A stretch of 64,000 bases of DNA from Porphyra umbilicalis. Taxonomy: Eukaryota > Rhodophyta > Bangiophyceae > Bangiales > Bangiaceae. Every line of letters begins with the position of its first letter. Position 1 is the stretch's first letter. The translations under genes and the position numbers were made by a program. Below, one piece after another: positions 44,147 to 64,000 of this stretch. The notes under the pieces were generated by a model that was given only the letters and a program-made list of their open reading frames with translations, was not told where the DNA came from and did no database searches. The stretch spans positions 1-64,000 of the forward strand of contig KV918768.1 of assembly GCA_002049455.2 (NCBI GenBank), given 5' to 3'.

Positions 44147-45819
44147 TTACTCTGTGTCACTCGCGACCAAGGAGCTCTCGATGCGACTGGCAATTTCAAA
44201 AACGGTTGCAGGGAGCTCCTCTGCCTCCAACAATTCTACCGCGCCCACCATGGAATTGGCTGCCTCACCCCGAGAGACTAGCGCAACGCGAGAATAGCAG
44301 GAACCCGTCATTGCCGCAATTTCTGCGACTTCTGTGTCCATGCGAGCAAGCCCAGGATGGTAACTGCCGTGCCGGCTCCGTAGAAGCGCAGCAGTGTCCG
44401 CCAAAACTAGGTCCGCCTTCAGCCTGCACTGAACGAAAGTGGTCTCCGATACTGCTTCCCGCTCCTTTTCCAGCATTCCGCAGACGTCCATGAGATTCAG
44501 CGTTGGGTCTGACCACCCGTCCTCTTCTGCTTCGCCACCAGCAACAGGAACAAGAGCAACGTGACGTGGCCGCCTTGGTACGAAAGGCCCCACAATTGTG
44601 CGGCGTGGGGGCGAGCAGGGAGTGCGGCCGGGCGGGGATTGTACGGCATTCCTGGGACGGGCGGAACCTGCGCAAGCCGTACCTCCTCGGCGGCAGAGAA
44701 GGGCACAGGGGGGAGCTTCGGCCGCCCAGGCGTGCCTGGAGAGCACTAAACAGGCAGAAAAAGTGCGGCCGCCGCGGGGGTGTCATGGATGGTTCCAAAG
44801 GCGTCCGAAGGACGACTGGTAGCTAGCGTGGGGCCGCCAGCAGGAGCCGAAAAGCTCCCGTGCGAGGCAGTGGCAAGGGTACGCCGAAGACCACCATCCA
44901 CAGGGGCGCCCGTGGGCGTCGCCACCTCGGGCGAGTCGCTGCTGCCGACCGGGGGCGAGAGGGGGGGGGTTGGTTGAGGAGCCGCAGCGGCGCCCTCTAC
45001 AGGCGTTACCGGCTGGTCACTCGGACGGGTTGGCGGAGGCAAACCAGTTGCCAACGTGGTGATGCCTGGAGATGAAGCCACTCGGGTCTCACAGTTCTCA
45101 CTTGACTGGGTGTTGAGACGTCTAAGTACACGCCGTAGTAGGCGCCCCTTGTATTTGCGTTTGACCGCCGATATGATACCCGTATCCAAAGGCTGATACA
45201 GTGCCGTCGTTTTGGGCGGCAGGCACACTGTAGTTACGATGTCCGCTCTCAGTTCTCCATGGAAGGGGCGTTGTCAATGATCAGAATCAAAGGCTCGGTC
45301 GTCACTCGCCGCACTTCTCGGACAAATACCGATGCAAATCACGCCGCCATGGTGGAACCGTCCATCCAAGAATTTTCCTGGCTGAAGTATGGCAGGGGGC
45401 AGGCCGCGGCGGGTGGACGGAAACATAGCAGTCGTGCCGCTTTGCCGATAATGGATATCGGTAGCTTATGTGAGCCGTCCGCATTCACGCACAATACTGC
45501 CGTCACGCAGTTCTTCGCCCGCATGGTCTTCGAGCCGCGAGAATACCGGCGTTCGCGCTCCGAAACGTAGGTGCGATGGGGGAGACAGCATTAGAACAGC
45601 CCGGTCTCGTCAATTCTGTAAATTCGGCGGGGATCCACGCCACGGAGAACCTCTCGGATCTCTGCGATGCGCTCGGCGGACCTGGCGACGTCGGACGACG
45701 CGCCAGTTCCAGTTAGGCAATTGCTGCGGACATCGTTCCGCTTGGCCCAGCGACAAATGTAGCCGGTTGTCGTGTTTAAGTCGTTGATACCATGCTCCTC
45801 GACCAGCTCCGCGGCCCTC
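44147..45819 (-). pseudogene. Pogo/Tigger-like (DDE_1) transposase, main part
   Basis: Read on the minus strand from 45819. MARAAELVEEHGI, with YICRWAKRNDV, is the CENP-B-type DNA-binding region. RIYRIDETGLF (about 45600) carries the first catalytic Asp. KNCVTAVLCVNADGSHKLPI and ARKILGWTVPPW / SWMDGSTM follow in two frames. LILIIDNAP (about 45270) carries the second Asp, and CLPPKTTALYQPLDTGIISAVK (about 45190) carries the third, the DDD form typical of pogo. Stops and frameshifts separate these blocks. The C-terminal 44147-44746 frame is a helical tail ending in TGA. The 5' end is cut exactly at 45820 by the chromovirus and resumes at 56163. Its domain organisation is otherwise complete. Confidence 0.8.
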
Positions 45820-45824
45820 GCCAT

Positions 45825-46592
45825 TGTGGGGGAGACCCCCTCTCCCCTGATGACGCGATCCCCCCGGTATGAGCCGGGGGAGGGGTCGCGAGCACACACG
45901 CAATGCCCCTAGAGGGAGCGGTGTGCGGCGCCCCTTCGAGGCGCCTGCCAGGTGGCGCTCAGGGCCACCCCCGAGTCTGACGTCCCCCTTGCCCGAAGGC
46001 AGGGGGGGACAGGGCCTGACGCGAACGAGGGGCCACGCGACCCCTCGATCCTGGCCCCCTAGAGGGGCCTGGAAGCTTGTGGAAGCTCCTCTGGCTGGGG
46101 AGAAGCCCGGGACTGAGATTAGATCTCGGCCACTGTTGATATCCCACGCGGACTTCGATCGGAGAGTTGAAAATCTGGGGATAAGTCCCTAGTGATGTAT
46201 TGGGCAATTTCAGTCCCAGCTGGCTTAAATCCAGGGACCATATCTCTCTTCCAGTGGAAGGGGGTCCCTTGATCCGTGGCAGGTGCCACCAGGACCCCTC
46301 ATCAGGGACCGTGGCCCGTCGGGCCCCGGCCCCCCTACGACCGTCTTTTCCTGGGTCGGGATTGTGCACGTCCTGTGTCTTGTTTCTGAGGGTATATGAG
46401 TGTATGCTTTGGGGTCATCGTGCGAACTCAAATAAATCAGCGTTGCGTTTGCGTTAGTTCCGGCGTTCTGGTGCGCTCCGCGCCCTGTGATCCAGGCGTT
46501 TGTGTTCTTTCTCCTTTGTGTCGCTCCGCATCCTGTGCTGGGTTTTCTGACGGGGCCGTGCCCCGTCGGCTTTGCGGGCAGAAACCACTACA
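45825..46592 (+). repeat. 5' LTR of gypsy-1
   Basis: TGTGGGGGAG...CCACTACA. AATAAA (about 46431-46436) is a likely polyadenylation signal. Several perfect hairpins are present, for example CCCCCGG / CCGGGGG near 45862-45881 and GACGGGGC / GCCCCGTC near 46549-46567. Confidence 0.93.
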
Positions 46593-46612
46593 TTTGGTGG
46601 ATCAGCGGGGGA
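46593..46612 (+). promoter_or_regulatory. Primer-binding site region of gypsy-1
   Basis: TTTGGTGGATCAGCGGGG follows the LTR directly; the TGG two bases in is the expected complement of a tRNA 3' CCA. The same word (TTTGGTGGATCAGCAGGG) follows the LTR of gypsy-2 at 60217, so the primer tRNA is shared, but I cannot name it. Confidence 0.7.
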
Positions 46613-46767
46613 CAGGGTCTGGCCCTTCTTGATCAGTCGGGTCTACCCTGTGTCAGTTCTCACGGTGGTCTTTCTGCTGTGCTTTGTCTTGCCCTTGGGT
46701 GTGACTGTTCTGTTGAGATCGTCTTTGAGGATTGATTGTTGCCGCATGAGGACGGAGTCTTCCCGCC

Positions 46768-48789
46768 ATGGACACCACTGAGGTGGCGGACACCGGCGCC
46801 TCGGGCGCCGGTAACCCGTCACGGGGCGACCGTGACGGAGCGAGCGAGGGCTCGGGGTCTCAGGACCCCGGAGGGATCCCTCCTCGGCGGGAGCGTCAAG
46901 CCGGCACCGCCATGCCGGAGCGTGGCGCGCCGGGCGACGGGGGTGGAGACGGAAGGGTATTCCCGTCTCTTCCCCCCCATGGGGCGGGGAGCCCAGGCGG
47001 AAGGGTATTCCCTTCTCTTCCCCCCCAAGGTGCGGGGGGCGTAGGTGGAAGGGAATTCCCACCTCCTTCCCCCCAATGTGTGGAGGGTGGAGCCGGAAGG
47101 GAATTCCCTCCTCCATCTCCTCTAACCCCGGGTAGGCGGGACCAAGCGGTCCCCCGTTTACCATGGGGCCCATATGACGGGCTGGCGAGAGCCGCCGGCC
47201 CACCCCGAACACCTCCTCGTGGAGGTGGTGACCGGGCCCCAACGGGGGCCCAAGACGCGGCTGCCATATCGGCAGCCCTACGGGATTCATTGGACGCTTT
47301 GATTAGCCCGTTACACGATCGACTGTCTCTCATCGAGACAGCCCTCGGGACCACTAGACGGTCCCGGCGCCGACGTCGGCGCATGAGTTCCTCCTCCTCG
47401 GACGGGGAGTACTCCGGGAGAGACGGGGGTCGCCATGTGCCCCGTCGATCGGTAACCCGTGCCCTAGGGCACGAGCTGGGAGGGGAATCTTACCGTCGGA
47501 TTCCCCCTAAGATCGTCCCCGCGGACGACCGCTATGCTGCAGTCTTAGACTGCGCAACTTATGTTTTGGCGAATACCGACATCCGGTACGACCGGACCAT
47601 GGCGCACGGCCTAGGCCGTCTGCGTAAGGATGTATCGGCCACTTTTGGCCGTGATGCAGAGTGGGATGGGATGCCCGCCTTAGGCGTCTTCGAATTTCTC
47701 AGCCGCTTCGTAAAAGCGGGTGACGACAATGACGTCTCGGAGGGCCGAGCCCTGTATCTCCATCCCGAGTTCACTAAGGGTGATCTCAAACGGGAATTGT
47801 ATACGATCATGCCGTCCCTCCAAGGAGGGTGGAGTGGAGAGGTCAGCTCCTACTTGGAACTGATCAACTGGCTCCTCCGCAAATATGCGGATGAGCAGTC
47901 GCTAAGCGACCAAGATGCCATGTTCCATGGGGCCGCCCAGGGGGCGGAGGAAACAGAGAATGAATTCTACGTACGCCTACGGGGGTTACGTCGCCTGTGT
48001 GGATACATTCACACGGAAGGACAGATGAAAAGTCGCTGTATGCAGGGGCTGGGTTGGGAGATTCGCGCCGATGTGCGCGAACATAATACCCTCAACATGC
48101 CAATGGACCTGCTGGTGCAATATGCCCAGCGGAAGGGGGACGTCTGTCGTAGGCGCCTCCAGGAGCAGAAGGATGAAGAGGACCGACGGGCCGAGGCCCG
48201 TCGGGTGCGTCGTGCTGCTCGACCAGCACCGCGGAAATACGTAACCGCGGCCGTAACAGCCCCACCTCAGGTGGGGCAAGTTCCTCCGGGTCCTTCCCGA
48301 TGGGGCCCACCTAAGGTGGGGGAGGTGTATCCCCCCGGAAGGGACCCCCCGAAGGCTGGGGAAGCAGGTCCATCCCGATGGGGCCCCCCTAAGATGAAGG
48401 AGGCCCCTCAAGGACAGGCTCAAGGGGCTTCCGCTAAGGTGGGGGAAGGGCCTCGAGGGCCTTTCCCACGGACTAACCCCAAGGGGGGAGAAGCGGGTCG
48501 CCCCGGGCGACCCCGGACGAATAACTGTCTCGCATGTAACATGCGGGGGCATTTCTTTAGAGAGTGTCCCCGCCTTGATGCGGGGACAAAGGCTCTGTTG
48601 ACCAAAGCATTTTTGGAGCGGTGCGAAGAGCGCCGCAAAGCGGACGAAGAAGTCCGTAAGGGACAACCGGTCGCGGCGGTGAGGGAACATTATGGTCCCC
48701 CGTGGTCGTCCTCGGACGACTCACCCTCCCCCGAGAGGGATGCGGCCGAGCAGGACGAGGAGGACAACTCCCCCTCGGGAAACGAGTAG
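46768..48789 (+). CDS. Gag polyprotein of gypsy-1
   Basis: 673 intact codons from ATG 46768. The N-terminal 120 residues carry four GRxFPxxPP repeats. The middle (about residues 250-470) is the Ty3-type gag core, with AEWDGMPALGVFEFLSRFVK, DNDVSEGRALYLHPEF and GEVSSYLELINWLLRKYAD blocks shared with gypsy-2. A Lys/Pro-rich linker with PPKxGEA repeats precedes one zinc knuckle, CLACNMRGHFFREC (residues about 587-600). The frame ends in an acidic tail at TAG 48787-48789. Gag should assemble cytoplasmic VLPs and package the RNA. Pol lies in the -1 frame and overlaps by 88 bases or more, so -1 frameshifting is the likely means of pol expression. Confidence 0.9.
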   Translation: MDTTEVADTGASGAGNPSRGDRDGASEGSGSQDPGGIPPRRERQAGTAMPERGAPGDGGGDGRVFPSLPPHGAGSPGGRVFPSLPPQGAGGVGGREFPPPSPQCVEGGAGREFPPPSPLTPGRRDQAVPRLPWGPYDGLARAAGPPRTPPRGGGDRAPTGAQDAAAISAALRDSLDALISPLHDRLSLIETALGTTRRSRRRRRRMSSSSSDGEYSGRDGGRHVPRRSVTRALGHELGGESYRRIPPKIVPADDRYAAVLDCATYVLANTDIRYDRTMAHGLGRLRKDVSATFGRDAEWDGMPALGVFEFLSRFVKAGDDNDVSEGRALYLHPEFTKGDLKRELYTIMPSLQGGWSGEVSSYLELINWLLRKYADEQSLSDQDAMFHGAAQGAEETENEFYVRLRGLRRLCGYIHTEGQMKSRCMQGLGWEIRADVREHNTLNMPMDLLVQYAQRKGDVCRRRLQEQKDEEDRRAEARRVRRAARPAPRKYVTAAVTAPPQVGQVPPGPSRWGPPKVGEVYPPGRDPPKAGEAGPSRWGPPKMKEAPQGQAQGASAKVGEGPRGPFPRTNPKGGEAGRPGRPRTNNCLACNMRGHFFRECPRLDAGTKALLTKAFLERCEERRKADEEVRKGQPVAAVREHYGPPWSSSDDSPSPERDAAEQDEEDNSPSGNE

Positions 48790-50936
48790 CGGGTGGGGCT
48801 ATCCCACCCGCCCGGGAGACGCACGGAGTCGACCGGAGATGCAAGTCATCTCGTAGGGCCGGGAGAAACCGGCCTAGTCGAGTAGTGGGGGCCTCCCAAG
48901 GGAGACCCCCAAAGGGAACGCCTTGCGCGTTCATGCCCTCCTCTAGATACCAACTAGCCGTCCGGTTATTCCTGACGGCAGGATTTGGTCTCACTACCCG
49001 GGCTATATTGGATGCGGGTAGTGGCTCAACGCTAATAGACCGGCGGCTATTTCCGGTCGATACCCCGCTACAACCGCTGGGTGATCTCGCGAAGATGTTC
49101 CATGGTGTCAATGGGGGCTGGCTCCCCATTGTTGGAGCTGTATGTCTTGGTGTGACCCTTGGGGGTCAGACCTCCTACAGCTCCTTCGGAGTCGTGAACA
49201 ATATGAGGGTCCCAGCTATTTTGGGCACCTCCTTTATTGACGTTGCGACAAAAAACATTGCAACACAGGAGCAACATGTGGAACTCCTAGACGGCACCAA
49301 GGTGCCGATAAAAAGGAGGGGAGCCCCTAGGGGACGCCCCGATCCCTCCATTTCGGCGGTCTGTGCTTGCCCCAAGGGGCTAACGGCTCAACTGAGGCCG
49401 GCCCGGAAGACCTGGGTTCGACCCGGGACGATAGCCCATGTTCCCGTAAGAAGTACATACACGGGGCATGGCCTCGTGAGAGGGCGACCGCCTTTGTACC
49501 ACAAGCATGGTTTACAGGTTGCCCAAGGCCCGGCCATAGTGATGGCAGACGAGCCCATAACCATCCAGGTGATGCACCTGGGCGTTACGCCGTTGCGGCT
49601 AACCACCGATATGACCATCAAGTACATCGACGCCCACGAGGGGCCGACGTACGAGGTCTCGGAAAGCGAGCTCAAGGAGCTCGCTACACCCCCTAAGGGG
49701 GTAGAGGGTTCACCTCTGCCGAAGGTGGATGTTTCTTCAGTGCCGGCGGAGTGGTCGGGACCCGTAAAGGCCCTCCTCCAAAAGCATTCCTCCCTTTGGG
49801 AGGGAAAGCTCGGCTTAATTCGAGGGGTGGAACACCGAATTCGACTGAAACCTGGGGCTGTCCCCGTGAGACAACACCCGTACAAGGCCGGGCCAATGGC
49901 CCGGGAGAGAGAAAAAGGTGAAGTCGAGCGTATGCGCTCGATGGACGTCATTGAGCCCGCAAGTGGGGAATGGGCTAGCCCCGTAGTGATGGTGCCGAAG
50001 CCTGATGGTTCGGTACGCTTCTGTATCGATTACAGAAAGCTCAACTTGATGACTATCAAGGATGCGTATCCCATCCCACGGATGGATGAATGCATCGACT
50101 CCCTAGGGGACGTCAGGGTGTTCTCCACCCTGGATTGTAATGGGGGTTACTGGCAAATACCAGTAGCCGAGGAGGACAAACATCTCACGGCTTTCACGTG
50201 CCACTCGGGCGCGTGGCAGTGCGTGCGCCTTCCCTTTGGGTTGTGCAACGCCCCTGCGACTTTTCAACGCGCCATGGATATGATCCTGGCCGGCGTGAAG
50301 TGGCAGATATGTTTGGTGTATCTGGATGATGTGATTGTTTTCTCGGGTTCCCCCGAAGAACACTTACAGCACCTTGATGAGGTGCTGACCCTGCTCGGGA
50401 AAGCAGGGGTCACCTTGAAGGCGTCTAAGTGCCACTTCTTCCAGGAGGAAGTGGAATACCTTGGTCATGTGATCCGACCAGGACGGGTACATGTCCTGGA
50501 GAAAAACCTCCGGGCACTTAGGGGCCTCCGTTATCCGGAAACCCAAACCCAGATGAAGAGCTTTCTGGGTATGTGCGGCGTATACCGCCGCTTCGTAGCA
50601 GACCTCGCTAAGATAGCGAAGCCACTAACGGCGCTTACAAGCACCAAGCTTCCTAAGAAGCTTTCTCCACCCTCAGGGAAGGAGACGGACGCCTTTGAGA
50701 TACTCCGAGGACGTCTATTAGACGCCCCTGTCCTAGCCCTGCCCAAGAGGCACGGGCATTATATCGTCGATGTCGACGCCAGCTATGAACAGCTGGGTCG
50801 TTGCCTACAGCAACAACAGTCCGACGGGGAATACCACCCCATCGGCTACTATAGCCGTGCTCTTCTCCCTGCGGAGAAGAACTATTTCGCCACGGAGATC
50901 GAGGCGCTAGGCGTCGTCTGCGCTGTGACCTATTGA
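48702..50936 (+). pseudogene. Pol of gypsy-1, part 1: protease, reverse transcriptase, RNase H start
   Basis: Overlaps gag in the -1 frame; the first in-frame start-like codon is GTG 48702. The protease signature is AILDAGSGSTLID (DAGS rather than the usual DTG/DSG). RT holds WASPVVMVPKPDGSVRFCIDYRKLN, FSTLDCNGGYWQIPV, RLPFGLCNAPATFQRAMD and the catalytic YLDDVIVF (about 50317). RNase H begins YIVDVDASYEQLGRCL with EIEALGVV. The frame is stopped by TGA at 50934-50936, where TGG or a similar codon is expected (AVTY-stop-RSYQEG), and continues in the same frame. It is therefore inactivated by a point mutation, unless the stop is read through. Confidence 0.9.
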
Positions 50937-51290
50937 CGGTCGTACCAAGAAGGTGCGGAATTTGTGGTGCGGTGCGATCACCGCGCCCGGTTATCGGTTC
51001 TCACTAGTATGAGTCCGAATGCTCGGATTAACCGATGGCGACTCCGACTATCGGAGTACAATTATGAAATACGGCATAAGCCGGGAAAGGATCACAAGGT
51101 GGCAGACGCGCTATCGCGTCTCCCTACAGAGGGTTTGGACACCTCGCCCCTGGACGAGGACATCACCGTCCTAGCTGTCGAGACCCGGGCCAGTGACGTC
51201 TTACAAGAAGCGTCACCGGAGGAGGCCCCTATGGGGGCCCTGACGGCCCGAGAATTTATCCTGGGCCAGGCTGAGGACACCTTTTGCTAG
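50937..51290 (+). pseudogene. Pol of gypsy-1, part 2: RNase H end and linker
   Basis: In-frame continuation after the TGA: EFVVRCDHRARLSVL, then NRWRLRLSEYNYEI and RHKPGKDHKVADALSRLP, the classic Ty3 RNase H C-terminus. It ends at TAG 51288-51290 (FC-stop-ARLKELDAL), where CAG would restore reading. The next pol segment follows in the same frame. Confidence 0.88.
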
Positions 51291-52847
51291 GCCAGGCTTA
51301 AAGAGCTCGATGCTCTTTCGCCCATTAACCCCACGTGGAGTCGTCAGGCGTTCTTCTTCCGAGAAAATAACGGGCTACTCTGCCGTCGCTCGGTGTACGG
51401 ACGGGAAACCCAAGTGGTTATCCCCGAGGCGCTAAAGAAGCGCCTCCTAACTCACCAACACCAGTCGGTGTTAGCCGGGCATCCCGGCTCGAGGAAGATG
51501 TATAAAACCCTTCGTAGGTATGTGTACTGGCCTACGATGGTCGTTGACGTGTACAAGCACGTGGAGCAATGCCCCGCGTGCGCCAAGAACCGTCTCTCAG
51601 AGACAAAACATACGACGGTGATGAAGTTGTTCGCCGCCGACGAGCCCTTCTCGGGGCTCGCCATGGACCTGTTGGGCCCACTGCCCACCTCTAGAGGGGG
51701 ACACAAGCACGTCCTGGTCATCTGTGACCGGTTCACGAAATTGACAAGAGCGATCCCCCTGAGGGAAGCCACGGCCCTGACCGTGGCATCAGCCTTTATA
51801 GATACATGGGTTGCCGCCTACGGCATCCCCGACACTGTCCTTACGGACAACGGACCGCAGTTTGCCTCGGTGTATTACCAGGGCATCCTGGGTTTACTCG
51901 GTATAGCCTCGAACTATACCTCGCCTTATCACCCGCAGACGAACGGCCAGGTGGAGCGGTATAACCGCAACCTCGTTCGACAGCTCCGCTGCTATGTGGC
52001 GGAGCACCAAGCCGAGTGGGACAGCCATCTGTCCCTCTTGACAACTGCGTACAATACGCAGGTCCATTCTAGCACTGGGGAAATCCCCTTTGCTTTCGTG
52101 AGCCCGAGGCGGCTCCAACTAATTGGGATTGAGAGGATGCCTCGGCTAAGACAGGCCGAGGAACGACCTGTCTACGCCAGCTCGGCGGCGGAACAATATG
52201 TTGAGGACCTGAAGGCCCTCATTCCCAAGGTCCGGGAGCACCTGGGGAAAGCCCTGGCAGCGTACAAGCGCGCCTTCGATGCGCGCGCTCGAGAGAAGAA
52301 TAACCAGCTAAAAGCTGGGGACTGGGTCTATCTGGATGCCCACTCCCGCTCGCCAAAGAAGCTTGGGTTCAAGACCCAGGGGCCTTATATGGTACTACAG
52401 ACCGATGGGTACCGATTCCCGGTAGAGAGCCCCAGGGGCATCAGGACGGTGAGCAGTGACCATGTCACTGGAGCTCCCACGCCCCCGGCGAGGGATGCCA
52501 AGTTGACCCGTGCCCTGAAGGCACAAGCCCTCTTTAAGGAGGGGACCCACCTTAAGGATTGTCCCGATTACGTGTTCGAAAAATTTATCAAACATGGTTG
52601 GAATGATGACGGGCAATCGAAGCTCTTAGTCAAATGGTTTGGGTTTCCCGAAGGGGAAGCCACGTGGCAATTTGCCTCTTCTCTTCCGAGAGAAGCCCTC
52701 CGGAAATACTGCCTCCGGAAGAAAATTAAACTCCCCGCCTTGACGCGGGAAGGGGTATACTTCTCTGACCAAGTCAAGAAAAGGGTACAAGACCTGCGAG
52801 TCGCTCGGGCGGCCGTAAAGACAAAGGTCACAAAGAAGAGGGGCTAA
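51291..52847 (+). pseudogene. Pol of gypsy-1, part 3: integrase with C-terminal chromodomain
   Basis: In frame with the preceding parts, ending at TAA 52845-52847. The HHCC finger is THQHQSVLAGHPG...CPACAK. The catalytic triad is in LAMDLLGPLP, TVLTDNGPQF and HPQTNGQVERYN. The GPY/F-like KTQGPYMVLQ follows, then a chromodomain: YVFEKFIKHGWND, SKLLVKWFGFPEGEATW, which in chromoviruses directs integration to marked chromatin. Residues themselves look intact; only the upstream stops separate it from protease and RT. With a variant H3 nearby that lacks K9 methylation, the chromodomain target is of interest. Confidence 0.9.
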
Positions 52848-52977
52848 GCCCCTTTATTCCCTACGGGGCCCTCTCGCACTCTCCCCCACAGTGCGGCACC
52901 TCCCTTTAAAGAGGGCGGTGAAGGGAAACACAACCAATGACCGAGGGACAGGGGTGCCAAGCACCCCCGGTGACAAG

Positions 52978-55185
52978 TCACCAACCCCCGGAGCGAGAAC
53001 TAAAGTCAGGGTTATAGCCCTGACCGGGATCATCATCGCGCGAGTAATACCCCGGCCCCGAGAAGGTCGGGGGTGTCGCCGAGGGACCCGTCGCCGTCCC
53101 ATAAGGGACAGGAATAGCAACACCAGAGCCCGCCCCGTAATGGGACGGGGTAGCCGATCCCGAGCCCGCCCCATAATGGGACGGGGTAGCCGATCCCGAG
53201 CCCGCTCCATAAGGGGGCGGGGCTACCGAACCCAAGGTCGCCCCATAATGGGACGGAACAGAAGAACCAGGCCCCACCCCGTAGTGGGGTGGGGAAGGGA
53301 ACGGCGGACGCTGTAGCGCCGCCGACGAAATACCACCCCCGGCCGGAACCGGGGGTGACGCCATGTTGCGAATGGACCATCCCGCCAAGACGGTATTGGT
53401 CTCGGCCACGGCCGCGCCATACTCCTCCGCCAAGAGGCGGCGGATCGAGTCGACTGTACTCAAGGAGTACAGCACGTCCGCTTCTCGGTCACCCATAGGG
53501 CGTGACACAATAACGGCCATCTCGTTGCGAAGCCGCACCAAGGTGCGGCTTAGGGCCATCATCAAGGTGAGATCCACCCCGTTGGTAAGGATCGGGGGAA
53601 GCTCCCCTAGGGAGCGGGCCAAGCCATCCCACACCGCGCGCCGCACAGGCCGCGGGGTCCCCAATTGGGCGGCCCCGTCCCACGAGAACAAGGGAAGGGC
53701 CGCCAACGGCGGACCCGAACGTCCCCCAATAAGGGGAACCGACCCTCCTCCGGGGTAGGCACGGCGCGACCGACCAAAGCGTCCACCCCCACGGGGGGTG
53801 TAAGGACGAGAGACCGCCCCCCAAAGGGGCGAGGCCGGATACGGCACCCCCGCGAAGCTCGCGGGGGGCGACGCTGGCTGTGCCGCCGGCGGAGCCAAAA
53901 TGGCCGCCGGACCGTAACGGTTCGGCCCGGCTGTGGCCAGGTCCCGATCAAGGGGACGAAGACGCAGTTCATGAGTGACATCCCTCCCACAAGGGAGGGT
54001 GGAGTCACCAAGGCCCTCCATGAGGACCAAGACCACGTCATCGTCAAGTACCTTGGCACACCGGAAGACCCCTCGGGGGCTCCCATCATACAGGAGCCAC
54101 GACTCCTTCCCATGCTCCTCCACAAGGCGGAGGAGCTCTAACCCGGCCTGCAAGAGGGGCCGAGCGGACGGATCGGCCGAGCACAGTCGCTCTGCCGTGA
54201 GCTTAACAAAAGCCGGCCGCAGGACCAGGGGAAGACGCCACAGATGGCCATGGTGGCGGATGCTGCCGACGAAGACGTTGGCCACCTCGGCGGCCCAAAG
54301 GGTCGCCAACATAATATGGTAGGGTCCCCCGAGGACCTCTCCCATCAGCTTGCTGCCACGCAGCGCCACCATCTGTGGCATCCGCGCGGCCATACCGCGC
54401 GGCACCTCGACCGACGCCCACCAAAGGGGGGCGATCGGATGCAGGGCCTTGCGCCGAGATACCGGAACTTCTCGGACCTCCCGCTGCTCATGGAGCACCA
54501 GGACGCCCAGGGTAGTCCGAATCGTCCACTCCCTCAGGGCGCCGGGTACAAAGTACCCGCGGTCCTCCTCCCCCAACTTGGGGGGGGTGCCAGGGAAGTA
54601 GTCCCACGAGAAATAGGGCTTGTCGCCTACCTCCGGGGGGAGGTCACGCTCCGCCAAATGGCGAAGCACCTGACACACCCGCCAGTCCTCCTGGCGGCGG
54701 AGAAAGGGGAAGTCCGTTGCCGTCCCCTCGGGGACGGCGTACAACGGGCCATAGTTGGCCCGGATGGTCGTCCATAGACGGACCATGCGGCGGCCCTCAA
54801 GGACCGCATACCGCTGTTCCACAAGGGACCCCCCGAGGTCCAAGGGGAACCGGCGAAAAGAGTCGTCGACGACGGCGGGAGTCGGCCAAGAAGCCGACAG
54901 GAGGGAGGCCAGGGTGCCGTCAATCTCCTCCTCCTCGCCGAGGACGTCACCAGGAGCACCACCCCGACTGTCGACCGCCATGGCGGCCGCACCGTGGGCC
55001 GCATCGGCCGACGCCATCGGACCCCGCGAGACGGGGCCCCAAAGAAGTCCGAAGAGCCCCACCCGTGGGCGGGGCACGAGGTCGGCGAAGAGGGGGGAAA
55101 AACCCCGGACACGCGCTCTCGGCGCTGTCCCACCTCGTGACGAAGAGGGTACCCGTGGGACACCCGAGTAGTCCGGTCCCCCCAA
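52978..55185 (-). CDS. Antisense ORF of gypsy-1, 735 codons, unknown protein
   Basis: Minus-strand frame from ATG 55183-55185 to a stop at 52978, intact, lying between the integrase stop and the 3' LTR where no sense gene exists. The first 70 residues are Gly/Arg-rich. The middle (about 80-400) is ordinary globular-looking protein with Trp and Tyr spread through it (RRMVRLWTTIRANYGPLYAV, DKPYFSWDYFPGTPPKL, RGYFVPGALREWTIRTTLGV). The last 150 residues are a low-complexity tail with tandem GAGSGSATPSHY units and a SGPGYYSRDDDPGQGYNP end. I recognise no domain. Antisense or extra ORFs in this position are known in some plant Ty3 elements (for example Grande), with unknown roles. Its integrity beside a twice-stopped pol suggests selection or chance survival. 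Confidence 0.7.
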   Translation of the reverse strand: MGGPDYSGVPRVPSSSRGGTAPRARVRGFSPLFADLVPRPRVGLFGLLWGPVSRGPMASADAAHGAAAMAVDSRGGAPGDVLGEEEEIDGTLASLLSASWPTPAVVDDSFRRFPLDLGGSLVEQRYAVLEGRRMVRLWTTIRANYGPLYAVPEGTATDFPFLRRQEDWRVCQVLRHLAERDLPPEVGDKPYFSWDYFPGTPPKLGEEDRGYFVPGALREWTIRTTLGVLVLHEQREVREVPVSRRKALHPIAPLWWASVEVPRGMAARMPQMVALRGSKLMGEVLGGPYHIMLATLWAAEVANVFVGSIRHHGHLWRLPLVLRPAFVKLTAERLCSADPSARPLLQAGLELLRLVEEHGKESWLLYDGSPRGVFRCAKVLDDDVVLVLMEGLGDSTLPCGRDVTHELRLRPLDRDLATAGPNRYGPAAILAPPAAQPASPPASFAGVPYPASPLWGAVSRPYTPRGGGRFGRSRRAYPGGGSVPLIGGRSGPPLAALPLFSWDGAAQLGTPRPVRRAVWDGLARSLGELPPILTNGVDLTLMMALSRTLVRLRNEMAVIVSRPMGDREADVLYSLSTVDSIRRLLAEEYGAAVAETNTVLAGWSIRNMASPPVPAGGGISSAALQRPPFPSPPHYGVGPGSSVPSHYGATLGSVAPPPYGAGSGSATPSHYGAGSGSATPSHYGAGSGVAIPVPYGTATGPSATPPTFSGPGYYSRDDDPGQGYNPDFSSRSGGW

Positions 55186-55389
55186 CGAGAGAGACCGTTT
55201 TGTATGCCCTGGGGGGGCTCACCGAGGCCCTCGTGGGGCCCGAGTCCGGGGGCGGCCCGCCAGGATGTCCCACAGAGGGGCCCTGGAGAGGCAAGGCCGA
55301 ACGAACCGCCGGGAGCTCCCCCTGGCCAGTGTGTGGGCTGTTGGACACAGCCCCGGGTCTGCGAGACGCAGGCCCTAAGGTGGGGAATA

Positions 55390-56157
55390 TGTGCGGGAAA
55401 ACCCCTCTCCCCTGATGACGCGATCCCCCCGGTATGAGCCGGGGGAGGGGTCGCGAGCACACACGCAATGCCCCTAGAGGGAGCGGTGTGCGGCGCCCCT
55501 TCGGGGCGCCTGCCAGGTGGCGCTCAGGGCCACCCCCGAGTCTGACATCCCCCTTGCCCGAAGGCAGGGGGGGACAGGGCCTGACGCGAACGAGGGGCCA
55601 CGCGACCCCTCGATCCTGGCCCCCTAGAGGGGCCTGGAAGCTTGTGGAAGCTCCTCTGGCTGGGGAGAAGCCCGGGACTGGGATTAGATCTAGGCCACTG
55701 TTGATATCCCACGAGGGCTTCGATCGGAGAGTTGAAAATCTGGGGATAAGTCCCTAGTGATGTATTGGGCAATTTCAGTCCCAGCTGGCTTAAATCCAGG
55801 GACCATATCTCTCTTCCAGTGGAAGGGGGTCCCTTGATCCGTGGCAGGGGCCACCAGGACCCCTCATCAGGGACCGTGGCCCGTCGGGCCCCGGCCCCCC
55901 TACGACCGTCTTTTCCTGGGTCGGGATTGTGCACGTCCTGTGTCTTGTTTCTGAGGGTATATGAGTGTATGCTTTGGGGTCATCGTGCGTACTCAAATAA
56001 ATCAGCGTTGCGTTTGCGTTAGTTCCGGCGTTCTGGTGCGCTCCGCGCCCTGTGATCCAGGCGTTTGTGTTCTTTCTCCTTTGTGTCGCTCCGCATCCTG
56101 TGCTGGGTTTTCTGACGGGGCCGTGCCCCGTCGGCTTTGCGGGCAGAAACCACTACA
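55390..56157 (+). repeat. 3' LTR of gypsy-1
   Basis: Begins TGTGCGGGAAAACCCC and ends CACTACA; the same length as the 5' LTR with about a dozen mismatches by eye. The purine-rich AAGGTGGGGAATA just upstream is the likely polypurine tract. GCCAT follows (56158-56162). Confidence 0.93.
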
Positions 56158-56162
56158 GCCAT

Positions 56163-56447
56163 GAGCAGCGCCACTGTCACGCGAACCGTGCGTCGGCTGC
56201 ACGCACGGAAAGCTAAGAACTAACGCAACAATGCGGCGTCCAGCTTCGGGTGCGTAGCTGGCCGGTAGCGAACCGAGTCCAAATCCACATTGACGAGCTC
56301 CAAAGCGCTTGTGTAAAGTTTTCGGCGGTAGCTCGTCCGACGAATGGCGCTGTCGCTTACGTCCACAGGCATCTCATGCTGAGTGCGGTCCCACGTCAGA
56401 CCTGCCCACCTTATACAAATAATCATGAGGCGGTACCGTCGGATCAA
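56163..56447 (-). pseudogene. 5' part of the pogo/Tigger-like transposase, beyond the chromovirus
   Basis: On the minus strand this reads SYRRKLYTSALELV and HPKLDAALLR, then a stop, then a helix (VRVTVALLMARAAELVE when joined across the GCCAT site to 45819). The W/R-rich HTH plus HPxLxxxL layout is the N-terminal DNA-binding part of pogo/Tigger proteins. It confirms that the chromovirus is nested within this gene. Confidence 0.65.
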
Positions 56448-57200
56448 CTTGGACCTCTTCTTGGATCCTCCCCCACGACGGGCGCTGGAGTTACCATTTT
56501 ATCTGGTGGGTGGGCTACTCTAGGGTGCCGTCCGGCTGCGAGCGACCGGCTCAGCAACGGTAGCCATCTCCACCATGGGCTATTCTGCCACCGCCACGCT
56601 CGAAGTTGGATCACAGCCGCCACTCCCACCCGTAGACCCATGCCGAAAGCTCCAATGCACCGATAGGTCGGCCGCGGCCAGGGCAGCTGCCCGGATTCCA
56701 TCGTGGGCAATCGCTCGCAGGTTGGGGAAGGAAGCCAGAAAGGCCGCCTCAGCCGACGCCATTGCTGCTTGAAACGGAGTGGCGAGGGAGGCATGCCATC
56801 CTGACGTGCGATCGCTCGCAGCCACCCACTGGTAGTCGTTATCGCTCGGTTTATCGATGATTACAGCAGCCACGCCGTAAGCCGCCTCCCGTTTGACGCC
56901 CAGGCTTTCGAATGTAAAACTTGACGGTGCCCCGTCGACGGCTTTCGTAATCCGCTGTATCTCAGACGGCAAGCCAAAGACAATATATTGAAGGAGAGGG
57001 GGGGGGAGGGCGGCCATGGGAGCGAGCATAGTGATCAAAAGAGTGTGGGACTGCGCCAAGTTGTCAGGTTGGCGGGCATCAGATGCGATGGGGGAGAAAG
57101 AGGGGAGTAGGGGCCACCGGGGCGTGCTCAACAGATGGGTCGTGAATCACGGGAAGGGACGACGACGGCTGCGACGAAGATGGCTGCGTCTTAATGGCTT
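56448..57200. other. Region right of the pogo fragment; one unassigned minus-strand frame
   Basis: A minus-strand frame at 56580-57131 (183 codons) is open and has normal composition (SLGVKREAAYGVAAVIIDKP; an AE-rich helix). It faintly recalls an RNase H-like fold, but no catalytic set can be assigned. Otherwise nothing is recognised. Confidence 0.25.
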
Positions 57201-57202
57201 CG

Positions 57203-57305
57203 AGAATAGTGACAAATCATATGTTAAATGTTTCTAAACTTTAACATTTGATTGGTCACTAATCTGTTAAATTTTAGACAGATTTAACATTTGATTGGTC
57301 ACTAA
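57203..57305. repeat. Direct and inverted copies of a TTTAACATTTGATTGGTCACT word
   Basis: TTTAACATTTGATTGGTCAC occurs at about 57240 and again at about 57283, with an imperfect inverted copy (AGTGACAAATCATATGTTAAA) at about 57207. The spacer itself contains GTTAAATTT/AGATTTAAC-like inverted words. It could be the terminal repeat region of a small DNA element, perhaps the pogo element's right end. Confidence 0.45.
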
Positions 57306-58379
57306 TCTCGGAGCCATTGAGACGCCGAGCGATCGAAGACAATTAACCGCTGTCGCGGCAAGTTCCCGATCGTCGGTCGACTCGTTAATGGCCTACCTGG
57401 GCCTGCACGGGGCGTGACAAGGTCGAGAATTGACTGCACGTGCGGGTGTGGAGGACCTTCCACCCTGTATACAGGTTTTAAGAACACGGTATTTTCCGCC
57501 CGAGTTTTCTTGTCGGGCTGCGGATAGCTAAAATCTTTGAGCATGTCAGCATTTCTCAGCGTCGGGTGAGCCACAGCCCTACACCACCGGCAGGCCATTC
57601 TCGCGCCGGGCCCGAAGTGGCCCGCCAACGCTGTCATCTACTTGTAGGTACCGATTCGGATGACTAAGACGGCGCGGGTCTTGCCCCGTTCTTAGTTGCC
57701 AATTGTGTGGGCCGTTTGGCGAGAGTGCTGCAAAAACACAGTGTAAAACGCAATCGACCCAACCCGCAGGTCGACGTCCCCCACGTCGGTGGAGACGGCA
57801 ATCGTCGCTGTCTGTACTGGCTTCCGGGCCCCCGTCCCCCTCTGGTCGGTGCGGAGAGGCGCTCCTAGAGGCCCGCGCGCGCATGCGTGCGTGGCCCGAA
57901 GCCTGCCAAAAGAATGACGCAGGCGACCCTTGGTCGCCAGCCCCCGCACACACATTTGTCGATTGCGTCGGCCCGCAAACCGCTCCGGTGCGAAACCACT
58001 CACCGGACGCCACACGTCATGCACGTACGAATGGACCGGCAAGAATCAGCTCGCCGGTCGAAAACAGACAATCAAATCAAAGCAAACTAAATCGCTCATG
58101 AAACGAAAACGAACTGAATCCACGAAAACCGAGGTACAATCACCAAGCCGGTTGCATGATGTGCCCACGGACGCACCAATCAGCGACCGTACATGGTACA
58201 CAGCCAAGTCTCGGTCGTGCAAGGGATTGCCAACGAACCCGGGCGCGAGGTTGAGTTCGCCACAAATGGTTGGAGTCGTGATGCGTCCGCGTGTGCCCGC
58301 AATCACTCCAGTCGGGGTACACGGCCCATCTTTGCCAGGTAGTCGGAGCGCTAACACTCCCGGCTGTTCCTCACAGAGC
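57306..58379. other. Unassigned region, possible transposon relic
   Basis: A minus-strand frame at 57302-57637 reads LAGHFGPGARMACRWCRAV, reminiscent of the CxxC gap in Tnp2-like transposases, but too little is visible to name it. Other frames are short. No RNA gene is seen. Confidence 0.25.
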
Positions 58380-59723: not shown

Positions 59724-60216
59724 TGTGAAAACCCAAATCGGCTGACTTGGCTGAAATGGCTGGTTCCTTACACTGTAATGTCCGACTTGGACAATTTGAC
59801 CCCTGGACTTAATTGGGGACTTGCATGTAATTTGTATGGGATTTTTGCGTGGGAGCCAGACGGATATCTCCTCTCCCCTTGAGCCGGGGGAGGCGTATGA
59901 TTGGTTGATATATTGTTCATTGTTTTTGTGTTCTGAGTGGGCGTTTTATGCGTGTTTTGAGGGGTTCTTCCTGCGTGCTTTGGGGACTGTGAGGGTATAT
60001 TTGTGCGGGACAGCGGGGCGAGTCGACCCTGCTTTGCTCGTCAAGTAAAAACCGTCTGGCTCCAACAGCTCTTGGTCGTGCCTTGCGACGGCGGCAACTG
60101 TTGCACACGCGAGTTGCGTGTTGGACGCTTTGAGGTTTTGCTTCCGGTACCCTAGCCCGGTATCGATTACTACGACGATGGCCCCGACTCGGGTGCCACC
60201 AGTGCGTAGTGCTACA
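59724..60216 (+). repeat. 5' LTR of gypsy-2 (left edge inferred)
   Basis: It ends GTGCTACA at 60216, just before TTTGGTGGATCAGC. The start is inferred from similarity to the gypsy-1 LTR start and from the break in the copia fragment. An internal CTCTCCCCTTGAGCCGGGGGAGG resembles the corresponding gypsy-1 LTR segment. The partner LTR lies outside the window, so the edge is unproven. Confidence 0.5.
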
Positions 60217-60646: not shown

Positions 60647-62288
60647 GTGTCACGGACGTCGAGCGGACGGTCCTTGTTCAGGCCTCCCCCTCCGAGTGCG
60701 GTTGGGGAGAACCCCCCTGTCGGTGGTAGACCGAGGCCGAGTTTGGCCATGGGAACCCCCCGTCAGGGTGTTGGCACACACTTCGGCAAGAGACAGCCGG
60801 AAGGCGAGTTGAGTGGGAGTCCTTCCTTCCTCGCCGGTGGGTCTAGCCACCCCCGAGAGCCCGCGGGTGGTAGCTCGAGTCGAGCTACCCCGGGGACCTC
60901 TGGGGAGATCGAGGGATCCTTCGGGTTCTTCGATGGCGGTTTCGAAAGTACCCTGGCACAACTTGTGCGGGATGAGATTGAGCAGTCGATGAGGAAGTTT
61001 ACCTTATCGACGCAAGGCGCTTTCCGACGGGCAAGTCGACGCGGGAAGCGGGCGTCAGAGTTGAGACGCCACTTGGACATTGACTCCAAGTCGGAGTCGA
61101 CGGACGAGTCCGCCGAGAGTGCTTCTGAGGACGGGCGAGCGCGAGGGCGCACCCCGGTTGAACGAGTTGTTCCCGGCAAGATTGTTGTCAACAACCCGTT
61201 GTACAAAGCCGTGTTTGACTGTGAGACTTATGGGCTGGCGAACAAGGCGACTCGCTATTCGCGCAGCCAGGCTCGAACTCTGGGCCGGCGCAAGAAGGAC
61301 GTCGCTCAGTCCTTTGGTGTCCGATCCGAGTGGGATTGGACTCCGGCGCTTAAGGTGTTCCAGGTTTTGCGTAAGTTCGCAAAAGCCTGTGACGACAACG
61401 ATGTCTCAGAGGCCGAGGCATTCTATATGGTCCAGGACTTCACCAAGGAACCGCTTCGCACCGAGGTGATGAACGTCATGCCGAGTCGGCATGGCGGGAA
61501 CCCCGGTGAGGTTTCCTCCTACTTGGAGTTGGTGAACTGGATGCTGCGTCGTCATGTCGACGAGGCAGACTTGGCAGCTCAAGCCGAGCTGTTCAACCGA
61601 GCACGCCAAGGCCCGATGAAGACGAGTTGTCTTTCTCGGAGCGCTTGCGGCAGATGAATGTCCTGTGTGGGTTCATTCAATCGCAGGGCGTCATCAAGGG
61701 GCGCGTTTTGGAGGGTGTCCACAAGGCGGCTCGCGCGACTGTGCGCGAGCGTAATACCCCTACTCTTTCCTTGGCCGAGTTGGCCAGGATCGCTGAAGTC
61801 AAAGGCGATGAGTACCGTTGGTCCCTTGCAGAGCAACACAAGGAACGCGAGAAGGAAGGGCGGAAGATGCCGGAGGTCTTCTCGCTTAATGCCCTACCCG
61901 AAGGCGGCTATGCCTGTCGGGGTTGTGGAACCGGAAGACCCGGCTCACTTGGCCGTGGCGGCAGTTCCGGATGCTCCTTCCCAACTCGGGAAGAAGGCCG
62001 GGTCGGGACCGTCCATGCTGGCAATGTGGCCAAGTCGGTCACTGGGCGACCCAATGCCCGAAGCTGGACGTCCGCCTTCGTGCCCAGTTGGCCGAAGCGT
62101 GGAAGGCCAAGATCCAGAAGACCACTCCGAACGCGGAAGCCTCGCGTCGAGTGGCATTTGCTGCCCAGCAACCCGCTGAGCAACAGGAGTCAGAGGCTGA
62201 CTCGCCGCACGAGGAAGAGGAGGAGCCAACCCCTTCCTCAGGTAAAGAAGCGTCGTCCCCTTCCGACTCGGAAGAGGGAAACGAATAA
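60647..62288 (+). pseudogene. Gag of gypsy-2 (two frameshifts)
   Basis: Frame 1 (to TGA 61655-61657) carries the gag core: SEWDWTPALKVFQVLRKFAK, DNDVSEAEAFYMVQDF and GEVSSYLELVNWMLRRHVD, clearly homologous to gypsy-1. The next frame from about 61627 reads SFSERLRQMNVLCGFIQSQG and RATVRERNTPTLSLAELARI. The third frame from about 61930 holds the zinc knuckle CWQCGQVGHWATQC and an acidic tail ending GNE at 62288. At least two indels break it. The start of frame 1 is not certain. Confidence 0.8.
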
Positions 62289-62498
62289 CCGCTGGCTACA
62301 AGAAGTCCTCACGTGCCTCAGCGGTTGGTCCGGGGACTAAGACCCCCCGGACTCCGGGGAGGTTGCGCATATTGAAGCGTCCTCGAGGGGTACGGCCAAG
62401 AGCCCAGGCCTTACCCAAGGGTACCGACCCGAGTCGGGTCGTTGCCAATTTGACAGGGGTGAACTATCAAGTGTCCGGCCGACTCTGGCTGGATAAGG

Positions 62499-63053
62499 TT
62501 GTTTGAACTTGCGTGCCGTATCATAGTCGATACCGGTTCTGCAGCCTCTCTAATTCGGCAGGAGTCTCTGCCGAAGGAGGTGCAACTGGGTCCTGTTGAC
62601 CCAGAGCAGTACCATATGTTTGATATTAATGGAGGACTCCTCCCTATTGTGGGGTCAGTCAAGTTGACTGTTCGCATTGGGTCCTATGACACCGAGGTGA
62701 CCTTTGGTGTGGTCCCACGAATGTCTGTCCCAGTACTCCTGGGTACGGACTACACGGACATACACGTGCCGGTGATCAGTGGACCGAGTCGGTTCATCCG
62801 TTTGTTGAATGGGGATAAGGTTCCCATCTTGGGGAGGGGGAAGTCTGTCACCCCTCCAGCTCCCAAGGTGGAAGCTGCTGCACACACAGCCGAGCCGGCT
62901 GATGCTTGCGTGCGTTTGGCCAAGGGGGTTGTGTGTGCCCTCGGTCAACAGGTTACATACTCGTTACCTCGACCTTTAAGGGAGACGGCTTTGTCTCCCC
63001 CAATGACCGCTTGTACCATAAACACCAGGAGCAAGTCGCGTCTGGCCCCATGA
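62499..63053 (+). pseudogene. Protease segment of gypsy-2 pol
   Basis: IIVDTGSAASLIRQ is an aspartic protease active site (D-T-G-S), followed by GGLLPIVGSVKLTV and VPVLLGTDYTDIHV as in gypsy-1 (GGWLPIVGAVCLGV, VPAILGTSFIDVAT). The frame shifts near 62940 into the RT frame. Confidence 0.8.
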
Positions 63054-64000
63054 CGTGTGTGGCTCACGCTGCATGGCGTGTTGAGATTCTCAACACGTCG
63101 AAGCACCCGCGTCGGCTTCCGAAAGGAACGAAGGTCGGGACTCTCCGACACTTCGAGGGCTCCGTCACGGCAGTGACCACCGAGCAGTTGGATGCTTTGG
63201 CTGAATACTCTCAGCCAAAGGCTTCGTCAGACTCGACAAAGTGCAAGATGCCCCATGGGCATCGGGAGAATGTCCCTCCCGAGTTACACTCTAAGCTCGA
63301 GGGGCTTCTCGAGAAACACCACAAGTTGTGGGATGGTGACCTTGGACTCATCAAGGCCACCAGCCACCGGCTCACACTCAAGCCGGGTGCGAAACCCGTC
63401 CGGTTGAACCCGTACCGGTTGGGCCCTCGGTCGAGAGGACTCATCAAGACCGAGGTGGACCGCATGCTGGACCGAGGAGTCATCGAGCCCAGCAAGAGTG
63501 AGTGGGCAAGCCCAGTCGTGCTTGTCCCAAAGCCTGACGGCTCTGTCAGGTTTTGCATTGACTATCGCAAGCTCAATGAGCTCACGGTGAAGGACAGTTA
63601 TCCTTTACCGCGGATGGACCATTGCCTCGACTCACTCGGCGATGCATCGTTCTTCTCGACGTTGGACTGCAACGCCGGGTACTGGCAGATCCCCGTGAGT
63701 CCGGAGGATCGGCACTTGACCACGTTTACGTGTCACTGTGGACTCTATCAGTGTACACGGATGCCATTTGGGTTATGCAACGCGCCGGTGACTTTCCAGC
63801 GCGCGATCGACTAGATCCTAGCTGGAGTCAAGTGGCAATATGCATTGGTATATCTAGACGATATCCTTGTGTTCTCCATGAGTGCGGATGAACACTTTTC
63901 CCACCTGGACAAGATCTTTACCGTTCTGAGTGAGGCGGGTATCACTCTCAAAGCCGAGAAGTGCCACCTCTTTAGTAATGAGGTGGAGTATCTTGGACAT
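62940..64000 (+). pseudogene. Reverse transcriptase segment of gypsy-2 pol, continuing past the window
   Basis: WASPVVLVPKPDGSVRFCID, FSTLDCNAGYWQIPV, RMPFGLCNAPVTFQRAID, then TAG at 63812-63814, then in frame ALVYLDDILVFS and AEKCHLFSNEVEYLGH up to base 64000. Apart from the stop the RT motifs including YLDD are intact. It is close to gypsy-1 in the same blocks. Confidence 0.88.

What the first reader, a model, noticed from the sequence alone, without database searches (positions are those of the whole stretch)
45825..56157. Chromovirus saturated with short perfect hairpins throughout coding and LTR sequence
Reading gypsy-1 base by base, perfect 6-9 bp stems with 2-9 base loops occur every few tens of bases, in gag, pol, the antisense ORF and the LTR. 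Examples: TGTCCCCGC/GCGGGGACA 48565-48588; GCCCCACC/GGTGGGGC 48259-48277; GGGGAATC/GATTCCCC 47482-47506; CAGCACC/GGTGCTG 50367-50387; CCAGGAC/GTCCTGG 50478-50499; TCTTCTCC/GGAGAAGA 50871-50890; GGTATAG/CTATACC 51900-51920; CTGCGTA/TACGCAG 52045-52061; CCTCGGC/GCCGAGG 52140-52161; GCTCCTCC/GGAGGAGC 54114-54136; CCGCGCGG/CCGCGCGG 54382-54402. A rough chance estimate gives only a handful of 7-bp stems in 10 kb; I found several dozen by eye. Proteins are still well conserved, so synonymous positions must carry the pairing. Possible causes: selection for RNA structure (packaging, silencing evasion or siRNA production), or RT template switching that perfects quasi-palindromes.
Basis: seen in the sequence. 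Interest (0 to 1): 0.92.

Follow-up and report, generated by a model that had tools for sequence, protein, structure and literature searches.

The report
Retrotransposons saturated with selected hairpins
A jumping gene in a red seaweed carries small perfect hairpins all along its length, far more than chance allows, and comparison of its copies indicates that they are kept while the element is active and lost after insertion; what the hairpins do is not yet known.

Summary
Gypsy-1 (45825-56157) holds 71 perfect stems of 7 bp or more with loops of 2-9, against 7.0 in dinucleotide shuffles. Codon-preserving shuffles give 1-3 per ORF against 12-17 seen; six of seven non-gypsy ORFs are at expectation. 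The excess is specific to inverted repeats with short loops, includes the LTRs, and was found in 20 of 20 other copies measured. Seven RNA-phage genomes show a smaller excess than gypsy-1.

On copy trees, internal-branch substitutions break stems half as often as expected and create them about twice as often; terminal-branch changes are close to neutral. Gains are not clustered and double changes are compensatory, against template switching. Related families have other hairpin geometries; one distant Ty3 and one copia sample lack the excess.

Best reading: selection for self-folding of a single-stranded replication intermediate. Pairing looks Watson-Crick and strand-neutral, so genomic RNA alone is not the obvious target, but that evidence is weak. 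Function unknown. The host is probably a bangialean red alga.

The parts
45825..46592 (+). 5' LTR of gypsy-1 (768 bp); 10 stems of 6 bp or more (loops 2-11) vs 2.9 expected
   Evidence: 98.6% identical to the 3' LTR, 11 mismatches
46768..48789 (+). ORF1 (673 aa, gag position, no Pfam match); 36 stems of 6 bp or more vs 7.9 in codon shuffles
48702..50936 (+). pol ORF with reverse transcriptase and RNase H domains; 33 stems vs 6.4 in codon shuffles
50937..51392 (+). stretch between the two pol frames of this copy; 5 stems of 6 bp or more vs 1.1 expected
51393..52847 (+). pol ORF with integrase zinc-binding and core domains, weak chromodomain match (20.0 bits, cut-off 25.1); 16 stems vs 3.1 in codon shuffles
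52978..55185 (-). antisense ORF (735 aa, no Pfam match); 26 stems vs 9.0 in codon shuffles
55390..56157 (+). 3' LTR of gypsy-1; 8 stems of 6 bp or more vs 2.5 expected
60647..64000 (+). gypsy-2, related family (54-55% aa in RT), runs out of the window; own hairpin type with A-N-T apex
   Evidence: continues in L048

Best explanation
A clade of Ty3/gypsy chromoviruses in this red alga keeps and makes short perfect hairpins along its length because copies whose single-stranded replication intermediate folds on itself locally leave more descendants. Shown for the gypsy-1 family: the hairpins exist far above codon- and dinucleotide-controlled chance; they are maintained, gained and compensated on internal branches of the copy trees, and decay close to neutrally on terminal branches. 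Shown from small samples: related families have their own stem length and loop type; no strand preference and no special tolerance of G.T was detected. Inferred: that selection, not a mutation bias, is the cause; that the folded molecule is single-stranded. Guess, marked as such: because G.T mismatches are about as rare as A.C and DNA energy rules fit better than RNA rules, the molecule that must fold is the cDNA, or both strands, rather than genomic RNA alone; family-specific geometry would then reflect the element's own Gag or RT that coats or copies it.
For: Excess over codon shuffles in 4 of 4 gypsy-1 ORFs and over local shuffles in both LTRs. 20 of 20 other copies (77-98% identity in the matched stretches) above the shuffle mean in 6.2-6.4-kb stretches. 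Stems of 7 or more: internal breaks 48 vs 108.1 expected, gains 55 vs 30.1 (n=801); terminal breaks 362 vs 410.1, gains 127 vs 112.1 (n=4016); internal vs terminal p=2e-6 for breaks, 5e-3 for gains; with threshold 6 p=1e-6 and 4e-9 (one search agrees with another sample of null sites). Protein constraint differs as expected for active vs dead copies (codon positions 169/105/527 internal, 1301/1150/1565 terminal). Pairs changed on both sides are Watson-Crick in 57-100% vs 15-36% for shifted partners in 8 of 8 copy pairs, which share copies and so are not independent. Hairpin centres kept: 20 of 46, 36 of 55, 14 of 19, 33 of 41, 56 of 58; chance 0.5 or less. Geometry: in gypsy-1 the excess in number is largest at 6 and 7 bp (77 vs 27.4, 57 vs 7.6); in the L050 group at 5-bp arms with 4-base loops (53 vs 5.3, three loci pooled that are 93-97% identical); gypsy-2 loops hold A[G/C]T in 24 of 48 vs 7.6. 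L049 (Ty3, 35% aa) and L054 (copia) near expectation, one sample each. Strand and pairing rule: G.T 40 and A.C 38 in gypsy-1, 109 and 101 over five sets, sense and antisense folding equal.
Against: No function is demonstrated, and more than 100 hairpins would each need to be visible to selection, which is hard to square with the small number of active copies of a transposon (recalled argument). On the shallowest internal branches (2-3 copies) gains of 7-bp stems are not enriched (6 vs 6.6), though gains of 6-bp stems are (18 vs 11.1). Gains of 8-bp stems are not enriched (17 vs 18.2), although longer stems are over-represented in standing sequence. Terminal branches are not wholly neutral (breaks 0.88 of expectation). 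The compensatory test in the L050 group was uninformative (8 of 15 double changes Watson-Crick vs 65 of 120 in shifted pairs). Strand evidence is mixed: on terminal branches A.C breaks are more depleted than G.T (78 of 121.2 vs 102 of 117.7), which would suit sense RNA, while standing 8-pair stems have more A.C than G.T (54 vs 71 over five sets; 15 vs 24 lineage-fixed, p=0.20). The G.T/A.C contrast with RNA phages is not significant (p=0.09 and 0.076). In one search the two hairpin-free controls differ between strands by -0.49 and +0.49, as much as the phages do. Two short stretches of the element show no excess (175 bp after the 5' LTR, 0 vs 0.3; 205 bp before the 3' LTR, 1 vs 1.3). Parallel-complement words are also in excess (66 vs 28.4 in gypsy-1, 47 vs 14.8 in L009), which I cannot explain. 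The A-N-T motif was picked after looking, and gypsy-2 has no close copy to test it on.
Confidence: 0.6

Rival explanations
1. Genome-wide sense-RNA structure: hairpins in the genomic RNA are selected, as in RNA viruses with genome-scale ordered RNA structure or as dispersed packaging signals bound by Gag.
For: Folding z in 120-base windows with RNA rules is of the same order as in the phages (L025 -2.22, L009 -2.70; MS2 -2.37, Qbeta -3.05, SP -2.09). Family-specific hairpin shape would suit family-specific Gag. On terminal branches A.C breaks are more depleted than G.T.
Against: Antisense folds as well as sense (sense minus antisense +0.20, +0.01, -0.09 for L025, L009, gypsy-2; L050 -0.43, L053 +0.23), while the phages lean to sense (-0.46, -0.32, -0.72), but hairpin-free controls vary by as much (L049 -0.49, copia +0.49). 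One-mismatch stems carry G.T and A.C equally (109 vs 101; phages 78 vs 49). Loop words show no strand bias in 8 of 8 sets (p>0.1).
Confidence: 0.25
2. Mutation bias: in single-stranded cDNA hairpins, mismatches are corrected one base at a time (or RT briefly copies its own arm), so stems become perfect without any benefit.
For: Explains Watson-Crick pairing, strand neutrality, spread over coding and non-coding parts, restriction to the replicating lineage, and does not need selection on each of more than 100 hairpins. Template switching can create and maintain RNA hairpins (PMC8794818, abstract and opening of the introduction seen).
Against: Gains are not clustered, no inverted loops (0 of 191), gains at 8 bp not favoured, shallow internal branches show no gain excess at 7 bp, and it gives no reason for family-specific loop length and loop sequence.
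Confidence: 0.15
3. Silencing-related: hairpins on both sense and antisense transcripts slow their annealing into long dsRNA, or hide the RNA from Argonaute, in a host with RNAi.
For: Needs folding of both strands, which fits strand neutrality; the element has an antisense ORF; the genome has 2 Piwi-domain loci and a frame with 2 RNase III domains.
Against: One distant Ty3 and one copia sample of the same genome show no excess; no small-RNA data; RdRP could not be looked for (the search did not complete).
Confidence: 0.1
4. Composition, codon-usage or assembly artefact.
For: The window is GC-rich, and GC-rich host stretches show a mild stem excess.
Against: Dinucleotide, local and codon shuffles, neighbouring ORFs, mirror repeats, and the same stems in separate copies.
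Confidence: 0.01

Closest known systems
Genome-scale ordered RNA structure (GORS) of persistent RNA viruses
   Same: Genome-wide excess of local structure over order-controlled shuffles, spread through coding sequence.
   Different: Here an LTR retrotransposon; short perfect stems with small loops; no sense-strand bias and no G.T preference detected in the tests done. GORS papers seen in a search listing only.
Dispersed packaging signals (MS2, hepatitis B virus and others)
   Same: Many hairpins along the genome (here one of 6 bp or more per about 77 bases); shape differs between families.
   Different: No common sense-strand loop motif in gypsy-1; no protein partner known. Review PMC6281560: passages seen.
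Leviphage genomes (MS2, Qbeta, GA, PP7, AP205, PRR1, SP)
   Same: Stem excess of the same kind.
   Different: Weaker: 109 vs 39.2 stems of 6 or more and 41 vs 10.0 of 7 or more summed over 7 genomes, against 122 vs 23.1 and 63 vs 6.4 in gypsy-1 and 101 vs 12.9 and 61 vs 3.2 in copy L009; the L050 group at 6 bp is not above the phages (7 vs 3.3, 10 vs 2.5). The three phages folded fit RNA rules slightly better than DNA rules on the sense strand.
Template-switch mutations that create or repair hairpins (Monttinen and Loytynoja, PMC8794818)
   Same: Perfect stems, compensatory changes, strand symmetry.
   Different: No excess of multi-base patches, no inverted loops, no bias in private changes.
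Ty3/gypsy chromoviruses
   Same: RT, RNase H, integrase zinc finger and core, LTRs.
   Different: Hairpin saturation is not a trait of the group that I recall; the parts of the result lists shown held no paper on it by title or start of abstract.

Membership tests
Ty3/gypsy chromovirus | RT, RNase H and integrase of the LTR-element type in pol | tested here: met
   PF00078, PF17919, PF17917, PF17921, PF00665
Ty3/gypsy chromovirus | C-terminal chromodomain | tested here: inconclusive
   PF00385 E=6.7e-4, 20.0 bits, below the 25.1 cut-off
Ty3/gypsy chromovirus | paired LTRs | tested here: met
   768 bp, 98.6% identical
Genome-scale ordered RNA structure | folding energy below order-controlled shuffles along the genome | tested here: met
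   mean sense z -2.22 and -2.70 in 52 and 53 windows of L025 and L009; L049 -0.37, copia 0.12
Genome-scale ordered RNA structure | structure of the genomic (sense) RNA strand | tested here: inconclusive
   sense and antisense equal; G.T and A.C equal; the contrast with control phages is not significant and hairpin-free controls vary as much
Dispersed packaging signals | shared recognition motif in the hairpins | tested here: inconclusive
   gypsy-2 A[G/C]T in 24 of 48 loops vs 7.6, chosen after looking; not in gypsy-1, L009, L050 or L053
Dispersed packaging signals | binding by the coat or Gag protein | not testable with these tools
   needs binding or crosslinking data
Template-switch hairpins | multi-base patches copied from the other arm, or inverted loops | tested here: not met
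   18 of 58 gains vs 228 of 818 other changes with a neighbour within 8 bp; 0 of 191 loops inverted
Known RNA family | match to an Rfam model at gathering score | tested here: not met
   0 matches in 45000-64000

The most novel reading that the evidence does not exclude
A clade of retrotransposons has evolved a hairpin code in its single-stranded cDNA: every 60-80 bases the reverse-transcribed strand must fold into a small strictly Watson-Crick DNA hairpin of a shape set by the family (7-bp stems; 5-bp stems with tetraloops; A-N-T apex), recognised or required by that family's own replication machinery, and this second code is written over the protein-coding, antisense-coding and LTR sequence.
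Probability: 0.2. Interest if true: 0.93.

Novelty: new variant of a known kind. Interest (0 to 1): 0.8.

Why it matters
It would be a genome-wide structural constraint in an LTR retrotransposon, denser in gypsy-1 and L009 than in the seven RNA-phage genomes used as a yardstick, with the internal versus terminal branch contrast giving a direct readout of selection on structure. Because dead copies serve as a built-in neutral control, these families could make the question of why genomes of RNA-based elements are so structured testable, and separate RNA-level from cDNA-level causes.

Tried and rejected
Template switching: tested by clustering, loop inversion and private changes; not supported. 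Composition and codon usage: rejected. Repeat-generating slippage: direct repeats close to expectation (42 vs 28.3, z 2.0) apart from a 36-bp array. A common loop motif for the families examined: not found. A strand-specific loop motif: TACT in loops of L067/L068 looked promising (4 of 10 and 6 of 14, against 0.5 and 0.9), but the general strand test was not significant (p=0.14 and 0.23), and the two are 93% identical. Relatives in IMG/VR: none confirmed. The energy comparison is void for its later rows, because worker processes kept the DNA parameters; one search failed to start; one search is the valid run. RdRP of the host: search did not complete. The organism was placed only by one host gene (73% aa to Pyropia vietnamensis, the closest named hit), so Porphyra or a close genus is a guess. 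Sampling limits: 40 copies of the gypsy-1 family including the window's (39 loci, L009-L047); 34, 35 and 33 of 40 rows entered the three alignments, the others dropped for length or coverage. Stem density was measured on 20 of the 39 loci (L009-L028), in stretches that also hold some flanking DNA; L014 has only about 1.4 kb of matched element. L009 and L010 were left out of the singleton count. Substitutions outside the ORF frames were dropped between (876 to 801, 4432 to 4016). Other families rest on 1.4-1.8 kb samples: eight loci 93-99% identical to each other (L050-L053, L055-L058), two of another family (L067, L068), one each of L049 and L054; gypsy-2 on one copy.


Full report
What was checked. 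The finding claims that a chromovirus at 45825-56157 is saturated with short perfect hairpins. All 11 examples are present (one is 10 bases off). Counting maximal perfect stems with loops of 2-9 gives 134 of 6 bp or more and 71 of 7 bp or more, against 25.1 and 7.0 in dinucleotide shuffles. In the 1-kb map there are 4-9 stems of 7 bp or more per kb from 46 to 56 kb, 0-2 in every kb between 20 and 46 kb, and 4-6 again at 61-64 kb in a second element; the GC-rich host part below 20 kb has peaks too (18 in the kb from 17001, 8 from 7001; shuffles give 5.7 and 6.2).

Controls. Codon-preserving shuffles give 2.6, 1.8, 0.9 and 2.6 stems of 7 or more in the four ORFs against 17, 16, 12 and 14 seen. 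Of the seven other ORFs tested, six lie within z = +-1.5; the seventh (15128-17731, 22 vs 12.0) is rich in GC-rich repeats. The LTRs and the stretch between the pol frames share the excess; two short stretches of 175 and 205 bp do not. Only inverted repeats are strongly enriched: mirror repeats are at expectation and direct repeats nearly so; a weaker excess of parallel-complement words is unexplained. The loop spectrum is that of single-strand hairpins: excess at loops 1-11, largest at 3-7, near expectation beyond about 13.

What it is. The element has 768-bp LTRs (98.6% identical), RT, RNase H, integrase and a weak chromodomain match, and its RT-upstream probe gives 41 matches in an 83.8-Mb genome, a lower bound. 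A host gene at 19106-20635 has its closest named relative in Pyropia vietnamensis (73% aa), so the host is probably a bangialean red alga. Twenty of the 39 fetched copies were measured, and all 20 exceed shuffles; the most divergent, L009, has the most stems (66 of 7 or more vs 4.3).

Selection or mutation. On trees of three pieces (33-35 of 40 copies), substitutions were placed by column-wise parsimony and compared with codon-position-matched random sites. Stems of 7 or more: internal branches, breaks 48 vs 108.1, gains 55 vs 30.1; terminal, breaks 362 vs 410.1, gains 127 vs 112.1 (one search agrees). Private changes alone are neutral (53 gains vs 60.6, 219 hits on stems vs 230.3, n=2218). 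Pairs changed on both sides are Watson-Crick in 57-100% of cases against 15-36% with shifted partners, in 8 overlapping copy pairs. Gains are no more clustered than other changes; in some stems successive gains fall on different branches, in others on branches of the same size, and in 7 of 58 gains the partner base changed on the same branch. Loops are not inverted (0 of 191 shared hairpins). Favoured gain stops at 8 bp (17 vs 18.2), which suggests a threshold near 6-7 bp. These results favour selection during activity over template switching. One-base correction in cDNA hairpins remains possible; the shallow internal branches, with 6 vs 6.6 gains at 7 bp but 18 vs 11.1 at 6 bp, do not decide it.

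Which strand, which molecule. One-mismatch stems of 7 pairs carry G.T and A.C equally (109 vs 101), where seven leviphages show 78 vs 49; with 8 pairs the numbers are 54 vs 71 and 41 vs 31; neither difference between the sets is significant (p=0.09 and 0.076). Internal breaks to G.T and A.C are equally avoided (19 of 37.2 and 18 of 41.5), but on terminal branches A.C is more depleted than G.T (78 of 121.2 vs 102 of 117.7). Folding z-scores are equal for sense and antisense in L025, L009 and gypsy-2, while MS2, Qbeta and SP lean to sense; yet the hairpin-free controls L049 and copia differ between strands by -0.49 and +0.49, so this contrast is soft. With DNA parameters the sense z-scores grow in all five gypsy sets (-2.22 to -2.73, -2.70 to -3.09, -1.84 to -2.19, -1.35 to -2.11, -1.18 to -1.68) and shrink in the three phages (-2.37 to -2.31, -3.05 to -2.72, -2.09 to -1.77); on the antisense strand the phages are mixed. 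The sets also differ in GC content. Loop words show no strand bias. Taken together the pairing looks Watson-Crick and strand-neutral. That fits cDNA, or a need for both strands to fold, somewhat better than genomic RNA alone; it is suggestive and not proof.

Family-specific geometry. In the gypsy-1 family the excess lies at stems of 6-10 bp with loops of about 3-9. A family at 45-49% aa identity (L050-L053, L055-L058) has 5-bp arms with a sharp preference for 4-base loops (53 vs 5.3 in three pooled loci). Gypsy-2 favours loops of 1, 3 and 5 over 2 and 4, with an A-N-T apex (13 of 14 one-base-loop stems end in A-T; A[G/C]T in 24 of 48 loops vs 7.6). L067/L068 have a milder excess with larger loops (stems of 6 or more 10 vs 4.0 and 12 vs 3.8). 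A Ty3 element at 35% aa (L049, 3 vs 3.4) and a copia element (L054, 7 vs 3.9, z 1.6) lack a clear excess. A global host process would be expected to touch these too, so the cause seems to belong to the clade; one sample each is thin.

Literature. Full-text searches listed GORS, packaging-signal and template-switch papers; in the parts of the lists shown, no title or start of abstract reports hairpin saturation of a retrotransposon. Most lists were longer than what was shown, and subscription papers are mostly not held. I saw the abstract and the opening of the introduction of PMC8794818 and passages of PMC6281560; all other papers only as listings.

Verdict. Observation confirmed; the selection part of the interpretation supported, the template-switch part not, the RNA part open. 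Function unknown; the mechanism given is the best-supported guess.

Noticed in passing
53126-53256: Tandem array of 36-bp units (3.6 copies, 86% matches) inside the antisense ORF of gypsy-1; it probably explains the direct-repeat peak at distance 36.
   Followed up: no
46939-47114 and 48289-48393: Degenerate tandem arrays of 48 and 39 bp in ORF1; the 48-bp unit itself contains GGGAATTCCC.
   Followed up: no
52978-55185: A 735-aa antisense ORF between integrase and 3' LTR without Pfam match; the hairpin excess holds there too.
   Followed up: partly
   Followed up: partly
G000 C574:12904-13800, C98:72899-73795, C361:8950-9864: Two Piwi-domain loci with nearly equal scores and one frame with two RNase III domains: the host seems to have Argonaute and a Dicer-like protein.
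   Followed up: partly
17117-17636: GC-rich simple and 105-bp repeats in a long ORF go with 18 stems in the kb from 17001; a caution for naive stem counts.
   Followed up: partly
L067 and L068: Loops of a gypsy-2-related family contain TACT on the sense strand (4 of 10 and 6 of 14 vs 0.5 and 0.9); the general strand test is not significant.
   Followed up: partly
45825-55389 and L009: Excess of parallel-complement words (66 vs 28.4; 47 vs 14.8), unexplained.
   Followed up: no
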